Below, piece after piece: positions 7,886-22,537 of a DNA stretch of 27,053 nt. Made by a program: the position numbers and the translations under genes. Position 1 is the first letter of the stretch, and each line of letters begins with the position of its first letter. The DNA is from a virus: IMG/VR virus record IMGVR_UViG_3300025853_000537, positions 1-27,053 of that record, one strand, 5' to 3'. The notes under the pieces were generated by a model that was not told the DNA's origin, searched no databases, and saw only the letters and a list, made by a program, of their open reading frames with translations.

Positions 7886-7962
7886 TTGTGTCTTGGCGGA
7901 TTATAGTTGCGTAAGTCCCACTTTTTTATTATAAATAATAGTAAGTCAACGCCAAGACACAA
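7886..7962 (+). promoter_or_regulatory. Start-codon-sequestering inverted repeat with late promoter in its loop
   Basis: TTGTGTCTTGGCG at 7886-7898 is a perfect 13-bp reverse complement of CGCCAAGACACAA at 7950-7962. The last A of the 3' arm is the A of the endonuclease ATG. The 51-nt loop holds a TATAAATA late promoter (7930-7937) and a direct repeat GTAAGTC at 7911 and 7941. RNA starting upstream can fold and mask the start; RNA from the internal late promoter (start near 7943) lacks the 5' arm. The arrangement matches the known T4 I-TevI control logic. Confidence 0.8.
7930..7937 (+). promoter_or_regulatory. T4-type late promoter for the GIY-YIG gene
   Basis: Exact TATAAATA, 32 nt before the ATG at 7962 and between the two arms of the inverted repeat. 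Expected transcription start is around 7943 by analogy with T4 late promoters. Confidence 0.75.
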
Positions 7963-17006: not shown

Positions 17007-17222
17007 ATGAACGAACAGGAAAATCATCTTTCTCAATTATTGGAGCAGAGATTAAAATTGATAGCAGAACTTGAAGGACTTAGTGAACATTCCACAAGAA
17101 CCAGAGATTTGATGCTTAAGACTCAAGGTGCTATTGAGTATCTGGAGGCAACTGGTGTCAAACTGCCAGAACCTGAACCAGAAGCAGAAGTGTCTGAGAC
17201 GGAAGTCGTAGAAGAGGGTTGA
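17007..17222 (+). CDS. Small coiled-coil protein with acidic tail
   Basis: A 71-aa protein. Residues 1-50 form a heptad-like helix (NHLSQLLEQRLKLIAELEGL, TRDLMLKTQGAIEYLEATG), followed by an acidic Pro/Glu tail (LPEPEPEAEVSETEVVEEG). It has the fold profile of a small dimeric coiled-coil protein and its own late promoter. I recall a similar gene in related cyanophages. Function unknown. The early promoter of the tRNA region overlaps its end. Confidence 0.65.
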   Translation: MNEQENHLSQLLEQRLKLIAELEGLSEHSTRTRDLMLKTQGAIEYLEATGVKLPEPEPEAEVSETEVVEEG

Positions 17223-17247
17223 CGCACAGACTAGAAGGCATTATAAT
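17219..17247 (+). promoter_or_regulatory. Host-type early promoter of the tRNA region
   Basis: TTGACG (17219-17224), 17-bp spacer, TATAAT (17242-17247). Transcription would begin near 17254 and run through tRNA-Arg and tRNA-Asn. The ~60-nt leader before tRNA-Arg has AGAGGC and GCCTCT arms that could pair, but no ORF of note. Confidence 0.7.
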
Positions 17248-17315
17248 AAACATGTTGAGAGGCAAAACACAGGTAAGAGCATCGACAAACAGATGACGCC
17301 TCTTGACTTTTTCAT

Positions 17316-17389
17316 GGGCAAGTAGCTCAGATGGAAAGAGCCACGCACTTCTAATGCGTTGGTCGGGGGTTCGAGTCCCTCCTTGCCCG
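17316..17389 (+). tRNA. tRNA-Arg(UCU)
   Basis: A canonical 74-nt cloverleaf. Acceptor GGGCAAG/CTTGCCC, D arm GCTC/GAGC with GG in the loop, anticodon stem ACGCA/TGCGT with loop CTTCTAA (anticodon TCT at 17350-17352), T arm with TTCGAGT loop. No encoded CCA. It reads AGA, a codon that looks common in these AT-rich phage genes. Confidence 0.93.
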
Positions 17390-17414
17390 TTGGAAACTTT
17401 ATGTTTCCTTATAA

Positions 17415-17487
17415 TCCCATCGACCGAGCAAGAGAACGGGCCGAACTGTTAATTCGAGATTGCTAGGGGCAGTACCTAGGATGGGAG
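17415..17487 (+). tRNA. tRNA-Asn(GUU) with non-canonical D and T loops
   Basis: A 73-nt sequence that folds as a cloverleaf of exact tRNA geometry: acceptor TCCCATC/GATGGGA, 3-bp D stem CCG/CGG, anticodon stem with four good pairs and loop CTGTTAA (anticodon GTT at 17448-17450), 5-nt variable region, and a perfect 5-bp T stem CTAGG/CCTAG. The D loop (AGCAAGAGAA) lacks the GG pair, and the T loop is GGCAGTA instead of a TTCRANY-type loop. One anticodon-stem pair (C-A) is mismatched. Either a strongly derived tRNA or a decaying one. The other three tRNAs here have normal loops. Confidence 0.65.
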
Positions 17488-17488
17488 T

Positions 17489-17536
17489 TTCTAACCTCTA
17501 AATTATTATAAATAATAATAAAGTTATAGGTTAGAA
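17489..17536 (+). promoter_or_regulatory. Start-codon-sequestering inverted repeat with late promoter in its loop
   Basis: TTCTAACCTCTAA (17489-17501) pairs with TTATAGGTTAGAA (17524-17536) at 12 of 13 positions. The 3' arm contains the only AGG ribosome-site-like triplet and ends on the A of the HNH gene's ATG. TATAAATA (17507-17514) lies in the 22-nt loop, so late RNA would lack the 5' arm. Same design as at 7886-7962. The 5' arm starts one base after tRNA-Asn. Confidence 0.75.
17507..17514 (+). promoter_or_regulatory. T4-type late promoter for the HNH gene
   Basis: Exact TATAAATA 29 nt before the ATG at 17536, between the arms of the inverted repeat. Confidence 0.75.
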
Positions 17537-18072
17537 TGTCTGGTAAAGCAGTTGTTCAATTTCGTCAAAGAAGAAAAAAATGGGCAGTTGATGCATTTGG
17601 TGGTAAGTGTGGTATTTGTGGTTATGATAAATGTGTTGAGGCATTAGAGTTTCATCACCTTGATCCATCCCAAAAAGATTTCACACTAACAGCATCTGTG
17701 GCAAATAGACAAGTATTTGTTGGAGAACTTAGAAAGTGTGTTTGTTTGTGCTCTAACTGTCATCGTGAAGTTCATTCTGGTATTGCCAATATTCCAGATA
17801 ATGTGCTAAAATTTGATGAAAGTTTTAAGGACAAACCTTTACCAGAAAAACCGAAGCACCCTTGTAAAGAGTGTGGAAAACTAACAACTATTACTCAAAC
17901 ATTCTGTTCAGTAAAATGCTCTCGCAAAAATAGAGAAGTTGCTGACTGGCCAAGTAATCGAGAGTTGCAAAAACTAGTTCTTGAAAATGGTTATTCTGCT
18001 ACTGGTAGAATGTTTGGTGTCAGTGATAATGCAGTTAGAAAACGATTAAAATCAGTGGATTTGGGTTTATAA
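17536..18072 (+). CDS. HNH homing endonuclease between tRNA genes
   Basis: A 178-aa free-standing HNH endonuclease. C25-x2-C28 (GKCGICGY) plus C72-x2-C75 (LCSNCHREVH) form the structural zinc site around the HNH fold; FHHLDP (H40, H41) gives the catalytic histidine and CHREVH the C-terminal metal ligands. A second zinc knuckle follows (CKECGK at 110-115, CSVKC at 124-128), then a helix-turn-helix (residues ~138-172, GYSATGRMFGVSDNAVRKRL) for target recognition. It lies inside the tRNA cluster, between tRNA-Asn and tRNA-Lys, suggesting tRNA-region homing (inference). Its final codons and stop overlap the first 10 nt of tRNA-Lys. Expression is probably late-only because of the hairpin at its start. 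Confidence 0.88.
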   Translation: MSGKAVVQFRQRRKKWAVDAFGGKCGICGYDKCVEALEFHHLDPSQKDFTLTASVANRQVFVGELRKCVCLCSNCHREVHSGIANIPDNVLKFDESFKDKPLPEKPKHPCKECGKLTTITQTFCSVKCSRKNREVADWPSNRELQKLVLENGYSATGRMFGVSDNAVRKRLKSVDLGL

Positions 18073-18135
18073 CTCAGTTGGTAGAGTATCGGGCTTTTAA
18101 CCTGCAAGTCGTCAGTTCGAGCCTGACTAAACCCA
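18063..18135 (+). tRNA. tRNA-Lys(UUU), 5' end overlapped by the HNH gene
   Basis: A 73-nt cloverleaf. Acceptor GGGTTTA/TAAACCC, D stem ACTC/GAGT with GG in the loop, anticodon loop CTTTTAA (anticodon TTT at 18096-18098), T stem GTCAG/CTGAC with loop TTCGAGC. The anticodon stem has one G-U pair and a T-C mismatch at its base. No encoded CCA. Its first 10 nt also encode the last codons and stop of the HNH gene. Confidence 0.9.
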
Positions 18136-18136
18136 C

Positions 18137-18165
18137 TTGACAAGAACTCAATCTTGTCTTATACT
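18137..18165 (+). promoter_or_regulatory. Host-type early promoter before tRNA-Gly
   Basis: TTGACA (18137-18142), 17-bp spacer, TATACT (18160-18165), 2 nt after tRNA-Lys. The -35 region is also part of the hairpin GACAAGA (18139-18145) / TCTTGTC (18152-18158). Confidence 0.7.
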
Positions 18166-22422: not shown

Positions 22423-22537
22423 CCCTCTTATGAGTTTACGGCATCTCTCAAATGTCGTTGGTGCGGGTGGGTTACTACCGTCCAGTTTCTTACTTCTGGT
22501 CAAAGAGTAAGTGGCGCGGCATGGCAAGACCCTACAG

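What the first reader, a model, noticed from the sequence alone, without database searches (positions are those of the whole stretch)
17415..17538. The same switch architecture at the HNH endonuclease inside the tRNA cluster
Seen: arms 17489-17501 and 17524-17536 pair at 12 of 13 positions; the 3' arm includes the AGG ribosome site and the A of the ATG; TATAAATA lies in the loop. The upstream RNA would be the early tRNA transcript (promoter 17219), and the 5' arm begins one base after tRNA-Asn. So early tRNA expression would occur without translating the nuclease, while late RNA can be translated.
Basis: partly seen in the sequence, partly recalled or inferred. Interest (0 to 1): 0.8.

Follow-up and report, generated by a model that had tools for sequence, protein, structure and literature searches.

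The report
Late-gene switch beside odd phage tRNA
In a virus of ocean cyanobacteria, an RNA hairpin next to a selfish DNA-cutting gene probably keeps that gene silent early in infection and lets it be made late, as in phage T4; the tRNA gene that touches the hairpin belongs to a phage tRNA class whose normally universal 'elbow' contacts have been rewritten.

Summary
The hairpin is real. Arms 17489-17501 and 17524-17536 pair 12/13, with late-promoter motif TATAAATA in the loop and the AGG ribosome site in the 3' arm. It is conserved in 20 distinct leaders of the same HNH nuclease; the 5' arm core stays invariant while silent sites diverge (dS up to 0.87). It should block the ribosome site in read-through tRNA transcripts but not in RNA starting near 17520. 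This is the known T4 arrangement (I-TevI, segB in T4's tRNA cluster, Aeh1 mobE), here with an HNH enzyme in a cyanophage. It recurs: 8 of 20 nuclease groups with an upstream late motif show at least 5 kcal/mol of upstream-dependent sequestration, against 3 of 63 other groups (p=3e-4). Timing is untested, and a sister clade of the nuclease lacks the blocking arm.

Unexpectedly, the 'tRNA-Asn' inside the interval (17415-17487) lacks the universal T-loop (GGCAGTA, not TTCRA) and is missed by ARAGORN and Rfam. Its cloverleaf covaries perfectly. It belongs to a phage tRNA class (18 isotypes in the sample) in which T-loop G55 goes with D-loop AG instead of GG. I found no prior description in the open literature searched.

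The parts
17219..17247 (+). early (host sigma-70 type) promoter TTGACG-17-TATAAT of the tRNA cluster
   Evidence: 11 of 12 consensus positions; kept in S-SKS1; use not shown
17315..17390 (+). tRNA-Arg (UCU), canonical
   Evidence: ARAGORN, Rfam
17415..17487 (+). tRNA-Asn (GUU) with non-canonical elbow: T-loop GGCAGTA, D-loop without GG
   Evidence: not found by ARAGORN or Rfam; 13 distinct relatives, all 19 pairs kept, 45 double changes; model R1 99.6 bits, though the window copy is one of the model's own 13 sequences
17489..17504 (+). 5' arm of the leader hairpin (outer stem 17489-17501)
   Evidence: core CTAACC invariant in 20 distinct leaders
17507..17514 (+). late promoter motif TATAAATA inside the hairpin
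   Evidence: cyanophage late motif NATAAATA (PMC2984593)
17520..17520 (+). predicted late transcription start (from T4 late promoter spacing; inferred)
   Evidence: T4 TATA box lies about one helical turn upstream of the start (PMC2988020); not measured
17521..17536 (+). 3' arm of the hairpin, with ribosome site AGG 17528-17530 and the A of the start codon
17536..18072 (+). HNH endonuclease, 178 aa, probably a free-standing homing endonuclease; the frame stops inside tRNA-Lys
   Evidence: PHROG HNH families, best E 3e-29; Pfam HNH_2 below cut-off; dN/dS 0.06-0.21
18063..18136 (+). tRNA-Lys (UUU); its first 10 bases are also the end of the HNH frame

Best explanation
The leader of the HNH gene is a T4-type timing switch. 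RNA that starts at the early promoter (17219) reads through tRNA-Arg and tRNA-Asn into the HNH gene and folds 17489-17536 into a hairpin that holds the ribosome site, so little nuclease is made while the tRNAs are. When the phage's late sigma system recognises TATAAATA in the loop, RNA starts near 17520 without the 5' arm and the ribosome site is open. The tRNAs stay early and the selfish nuclease becomes a late protein. Shown: sequence, predicted hairpin, its conservation, predicted opening of the ribosome site in late-start RNA, recurrence at unrelated nucleases. Inferred: use of both promoters, read-through, timing of translation, homing activity.
For: Hairpin z -3.7, absent from late-start RNA. 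In 20 distinct leaders 96% of pair cells are standard, against at most 55% when slid, with 3 two-sided changes. The non-coding core CTAACC of the 5' arm is invariant although silent sites reach dS 0.87 and the protein is under purifying selection; it is kept behind an ordinary tRNA-Asn too (L024, L047). Removing the upstream segment lowers the cost of opening the ribosome site by 9.4 kcal/mol (measured on identical locus L002), p 0.0099 against 100 shuffles. Same architecture enriched at nuclease genes: 8/20 against 3/63 groups, p 3.3e-4; 7/19 against 3/63 without this family, p 0.001. Cyanophage late motif NATAAATA with gp55 and gp33 homologues (PMC2984593). Precedents: I-TevI, segB in the T4 tRNA cluster, Aeh1 mobE (PMC2988022), gene e (PMC3014915).
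Against: No expression data. The clade at about 50% identity (L052-L063) keeps the late motif without the blocking arm. In L029 the 5' arm and the tRNA are replaced by other sequence. In the window the ribosome site is weak (ATAGG; relatives have GAGG or GGAGG). Only three pairs show two-sided change because the leaders are 93% identical. Some other nuclease leaders, including F-CphI of S-PM2 and the GIY-YIG gene of this window, lack the effect.
Confidence: 0.8

Rival explanations
1. The hairpin is mainly a spacer element for tRNA processing: a stem directly after tRNA-Asn that guides or limits 3' trimming, its reach over the ribosome site being incidental.
For: Other spacers of the cluster are hairpins too: GGAAAC..GTTTCC after tRNA-Arg and GACAAGA..TCTTGTC after tRNA-Lys; in S-SKS1 GACAATCAT..ATGATTGTC after tRNA-Asn. 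The stem starts one base after the tRNA.
Against: The 3' arm covers the ribosome site in almost all close relatives and the stem moves with the nuclease, not with the tRNA: same stem behind an ordinary tRNA-Asn (L024, L047). The same architecture occurs at nuclease genes away from tRNAs, for example S-SKS1 SWZG_00023.
Confidence: 0.1
2. The inverted repeat acts as DNA: an operator over the late promoter to which the nuclease or another protein binds, as I-TevI represses its own late promoter.
For: I-TevI binds a site over its late promoter (PMC2988022). The protein has a C-terminal segment that looks like a helix-turn-helix (my reading).
Against: Several pair changes go through G-U, which keeps RNA but not DNA symmetry. 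Arm sequences differ completely between nuclease families while the position over the ribosome site recurs.
Confidence: 0.1
3. Chance: an A/T-rich leader around a palindrome-like late motif gives stems readily.
For: On this sequence alone the outer-arm score is about a 1% event per site; the inner stem partly follows from the motif itself.
Against: Conservation at high silent divergence, two-sided changes, enrichment at nucleases against other late genes with the same motif.
Confidence: 0.03

Closest known systems
T4 segB leader (GIY-YIG homing endonuclease in the T4 tRNA cluster, between tRNA-Arg and tRNA-Ile)
   Same: Free-standing nuclease gene inside a phage tRNA cluster, predicted late promoter, RNA structure over the ribosome site (PMC2988022).
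   Different: Unrelated enzyme family (HNH against GIY-YIG), cyanophage, different neighbours; here the late motif lies inside the hairpin and the arm touches tRNA-Asn.
T4 I-TevI, I-TevII, I-TevIII and Aeh1 mobE leaders
   Same: Structure sequesters the ribosome site in early and middle RNA; for I-TevI a late promoter gives RNA without it (PMC2988022).
   Different: I-Tev genes are in introns; mobE lies in a ribonucleotide reductase gene. No experiment on the cyanophage leader.
T4 genes e, soc, 49
   Same: Same logic for non-nuclease genes (PMC3014915).
   Different: Lysis, capsid and resolvase genes, not mobile nucleases.
Bacterial and phage tRNA-Asn (GUU)
   Same: Cloverleaf, GUU with U33, U1-A72, G73, 73 nt; CCA encoded in many relatives.
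   Different: T-loop GGCAGTA instead of TTCRANY, D-loop without GG, missed by ARAGORN and by the Rfam tRNA model.

Membership tests
T4-type late-promoter / ribosome-site hairpin switch | In read-through RNA the ribosome site is in a stable stem | tested here: met
   (prediction and comparison, no probing)
T4-type late-promoter / ribosome-site hairpin switch | Late promoter placed so that late RNA lacks the 5' arm | tested here: met
   motif 17507-17514 between the arms; motif known for cyanophages; promoter use not shown
T4-type late-promoter / ribosome-site hairpin switch | An early transcript runs into the gene | tested here: inconclusive
   good promoter at 17219, no + strand terminator predicted before the gene; no RNA data
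T4-type late-promoter / ribosome-site hairpin switch | Protein made late only; loss of the 5' arm causes early synthesis | not testable with these tools
   needs reporters or ribosome profiling
Free-standing HNH homing endonuclease | HNH domain with the motif residues in place | tested here: met
   PHROG HNH families, E 3e-29; CGIC, EFHHLDP, CSNCHREVH present; Pfam HNH_2 only 13.1 bits, cut-off 21
Free-standing HNH homing endonuclease | Sporadic insertion, with empty sites in relatives | tested here: met
   S-SKS1 lacks it; same tRNA-Asn with and without it
Free-standing HNH homing endonuclease | Cuts the allele without the gene and is inherited preferentially | not testable with these tools
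   needs cleavage assay and mixed infection
Canonical tRNA (RF00005) | Cloverleaf with covarying stems | tested here: met
   100% of cells paired, 45 double changes, 0/500 shuffles
Canonical tRNA (RF00005) | TTCRA T-loop, GG D-loop, match to the tRNA model | tested here: not met
   GGCAGTA T-loop, no GG; no Rfam match up to E 10
Intrinsic terminator | G/C stem followed by a T-run | tested here: not met
   none found on the + strand

The most novel reading that the evidence does not exclude
The tRNA-Asn inside the interval belongs to a large, apparently undescribed class of phage tRNAs with a rewritten elbow: the usual G18-U55 contact becomes A18-G55, and U54-A58 becomes A54-U58 or G54-G58. These are working tRNAs that replace the canonical ones; since U54 and U55 are gone they cannot receive the usual modifications and may escape host factors that read the elbow. 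Several nuclease families, most with a late hairpin leader, insert at the 3' end of this tRNA.
Probability: 0.55. Interest if true: 0.85.

Novelty: new variant of a known kind. Interest (0 to 1): 0.6.

Why it matters
The switch extends a T4 principle to phages of marine cyanobacteria and suggests that unrelated selfish nucleases converge on it: late production seems to be a common need of such elements, and this is testable in the cultured phage S-SKS1, which has one such leader. Taken alone the switch is a new member of a known kind. The tRNA matters more. A review calls position 55 of the T-loop universally conserved (PMC4810234). A class of phage tRNAs that changes both partners of that contact would be a natural experiment on how tRNA folds and is recognised, would explain tRNAs missing from phage annotations, and raises the question whether host enzymes or defences that read the elbow are being avoided.

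Tried and rejected
Terminator: none found on the + strand. DNA operator: kept as a rival but disfavoured by G-U pairs and by arm sequences that differ between families. My first measure of sequestration (pairing probability of the SD) saturates in A/T-rich DNA and gave a median p of 0.148 for the query family; I then used opening energy against shuffled upstream DNA. I changed the measure after seeing the first result, so the enrichment p-values are exploratory. One script timed out; two family searches failed on wrong coordinates and were repeated. The original papers on T4 segB and Aeh1 mobE are not in the library; I rely on two reviews. Distant blastn of tRNA plus leader against named phages finds only part of the tRNA, in Microcystis phage Mwe-JY26. 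Two alternative-loop tRNAs (Trp, Glu) have no close copy among named phages. Searching bacterial relatives by genome was not possible from this record. Covariance-model hits in S-PM2 and S-SKS1 are ordinary tRNAs with TTC loops.

Full report
WHERE IT IS. The window is a virus record of 27,053 bases. Its closest named relative here is Synechococcus phage S-SKS1, 92.7% identity over 54% of the queried 1.6 kb. The interval lies in a small tRNA cluster. S-SKS1 has Arg-Asn-Pro-Ala-Ser-Ile-Ser-Thr-Lys-Gly and no nuclease there; the window has Arg-Asn-[HNH]-Lys-Gly. The HNH frame ends inside tRNA-Lys.

OBSERVATION. The stem is stable against shuffles (z -3.7, 0/200), and RNA that starts at 17520 or 17507 has no comparable structure. 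On one sequence alone the outer arms are about a 1% event per site, so I looked for conservation.

RELATIVES. A scan of IMG/VR gave 80 loci with relatives of the HNH protein; about 50 are at 75-100% identity and a further set at about 50%. In the close group the leader is nearly always the end of tRNA-Asn, then TTCTAACC...TATAAATA...GGTTAG and a start codon. In 20 distinct leaders the stem has 96% standard pairs; sliding the partners gives at most 55%; three pairs have a change on both sides (for example U-A to C-G in the inner stem of L039), and several vary through G-U. The shuffle control is weaker (95.1% paired on average) because the leaders are so alike. The proteins are under purifying selection (dN/dS 0.06-0.21) and silent sites have diverged to dS 0.87, yet the core CTAACC of the 5' arm, which codes for nothing, does not change. 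The arm is present behind the unusual tRNA-Asn and also behind ordinary tRNA-Asn in L024 and L047, so it belongs to the nuclease module. The clade at about 50% identity (L052-L063) keeps the late motif, but its predicted fold leaves the ribosome site alone: a real limit on the claim.

MECHANISM. NATAAATA is the described late promoter of cyanomyoviruses, which carry homologues of the T4 late factors gp55, gp33 and gp45 (PMC2984593); S-SKS1 has an annotated gp55. From T4 geometry (TATA box about one helical turn upstream of the start; PMC2988020) the late RNA would start near 17520 (inference), leaving AAAGUUAUAGGUUAGAAUG. In the close group the ribosome site is mostly 10-30% unpaired in the long RNA and mostly 35-85% in the short one (L015 and L051 are exceptions); the AUG changes little. 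So the predicted effect is on the Shine-Dalgarno sequence. The early promoter at 17219 matches 11 of 12 positions, and no + strand terminator is predicted before the gene.

IS IT GENERAL? I took all late motifs ([TC]ATAAATA) lying 13-60 nt ahead of an open frame in 1.46 Mb of held DNA, including nearly all of S-SKS1 and all of S-PM2: 196 sites, 83 protein groups. For each I computed how much the upstream segment, absent from late RNA, raises the cost of opening the ribosome site. Twenty groups were labelled nucleases: several on PHROG matches of a member, others on annotation or on sequence motifs alone (clusters 52, 53, 56, 63, 68 among them). 8 of 20 nuclease groups against 3 of 63 others reach 5 kcal/mol (Fisher p 3.3e-4; 7/19 against 3/63, p 0.001, without the query family). 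The strongest cases differ in protein family and arm sequence: GIY-YIG type (L089/L161, L148), HNH of several kinds (L086/L095, L083, this one) and SWZG_00023 of the cultured phage S-SKS1. Limits: most loci were fetched through this nuclease or its neighbouring tRNA, the labels were mine, and the measure was chosen after a first one saturated. Exceptions exist: F-CphI of S-PM2, the GIY-YIG gene at 7962 in this window, and one non-nuclease, a protease-like protein in L147 with the strongest effect of all.

COMPARISON. The arrangement is the one described for T4 I-TevI, for T4 segB in the tRNA cluster and for Aeh1 mobE (PMC2988022), and for T4 genes e, soc and 49 (PMC3014915). New here are the lineage (cyanophage), the enzyme family at this place, the comparative support, and the sign of convergence across nuclease families. 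As a switch it is a new member of a known kind.

THE tRNA IN THE INTERVAL. The stretch 17415-17487 is not found by ARAGORN or by Rfam even at E 10. It has T-loop GGCAGTA and a D-loop without GG. An alignment of 13 distinct relatives gives 100% paired cells in all four stems with 45 two-sided changes, 0/500 shuffles. It has GUU with U33, U1-A72, G73 and exactly 73 nt. Many relatives encode CCA, among them an unannotated copy in the cultured Microcystis phage Mwe-JY26. Among arrays with at least eight ARAGORN tRNAs, a canonical tRNA-Asn is present in 3 of 65 that carry the unusual one and in 47 of 76 that do not, so it appears to replace the ordinary tRNA. In 84,980 bacterial and archaeal species a core pattern was found once, in a contig with a dense, phage-like tRNA array and a copy identical to the common cyanophage one.

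A WIDER CLASS. Two more viral scans by T-arm pattern and a cloverleaf search gave 108 distinct tRNAs with T-loop RGCRKYN over 26 anticodons. Of ten permuted-loop controls nine gave 0-3; the tenth gave 38 and is itself a related variant, ATCGTTA. ARAGORN finds 29 of the 108 and 2 of the 30 Asn ones; the Rfam model finds some, for example the Glu one of Mwe-JY26 at 42 bits. Among 805 distinct CCA-encoding cloverleafs with any T-loop, T at position 55 goes with GG in the D-loop (640 of 670) and G at 55 goes with AG without GG (112 of 129), Fisher 2e-92; after 75% clustering 98 of 115 against 26 of 479. Positions 54-58 are T-A, A-T or G-G in 95%. Loops with A54/T58 or G54/G58 but T55 keep GG in 41 of 41, so the two changes are separable and the D-loop follows position 55, as a tertiary contact 18-55 would require. 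Limits: loci were fetched by T-arm patterns (the D-loop was not selected on), 'AG' is a substring test and not a placed position, the sequences are related to each other, and no RNA has been seen. A review held here calls position 55 universally conserved and notes that many metazoan mitochondrial tRNAs lack the elbow (PMC4810234); another gives the eukaryotic initiator tRNA with A54 as a special case (PMC7912444). Five searches found no description of such phage tRNAs, but subscription papers are not covered.

A LANDING SITE. Directly after base 73 of this tRNA-Asn, relatives carry this HNH nuclease, at least four other genes that are nucleases or look like them (L114/L157, L083, L120/L125, L140), or none, most with TATAAATA or CATAAATA inside a hairpin. 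Which site the enzyme cuts is unknown.

VERDICT. Observation confirmed; interpretation well supported by comparison but untested by experiment; a known kind of switch.

Noticed in passing
window 17415-17487 and about 180 other loci with a related tRNA-Asn: tRNA-Asn with rewritten elbow (T-loop GGCAGTA / GGCGGTA / AGCGTTA); member of a wider phage class with G55 paired with D-loop AG over 18 isotypes.
   Followed up: yes
L173 (Microcystis phage Mwe-JY26, PP438418.1): 924-997, 1496-1570, 2031-2104: Three tRNAs with alternative T-loops (Thr GGU, Asn GUU, Glu UUC), CCA encoded, none annotated in the record.
   Followed up: partly
L083, L114/L157, L120/L125, L140, and the query family: Different nuclease or nuclease-like genes inserted exactly after base 73 of the unusual tRNA-Asn, most with a late motif inside a hairpin: an insertion hot spot.
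   Followed up: partly
L029 upstream of position 1710: tRNA-Asn and 5' arm replaced by a spacer with TTGACA..TATGAT, late motif and gene kept: a natural loss of the switch arm, perhaps with an early promoter of its own.
   Followed up: partly
L100 near 7700: tRNA-Asn broken after GATTGG and joined to the coding end of the HNH gene: a deletion scar that records a former copy.
   Followed up: no
L147 6538-7383: Protease-like protein with a signal-like N-terminus whose GGAGG site is covered by a perfect stem around TATAAATA (16 kcal/mol), the strongest case of the scan and not a nuclease.
   Followed up: no
L165 22787-23357 (S-SKS1 SWZG_00023, near psbD): Endonuclease-like gene annotated as hypothetical, with the same late-motif hairpin over GAAGG; a cultured test case.
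   Followed up: partly
window 17391-17414 and 18137-18165; S-SKS1 spacers: tRNA spacers are hairpins, some with TTGACA..TATA(A/C)T or TATGAT promoter-like boxes in their arms.
   Followed up: no
window 18063-18072: The HNH frame ends inside tRNA-Lys, using its TAA; in relatives it ends in or just before other tRNAs.
   Followed up: no
window 22430-22525: Rfam wcaG RNA motif, 76 bits.
   Followed up: no
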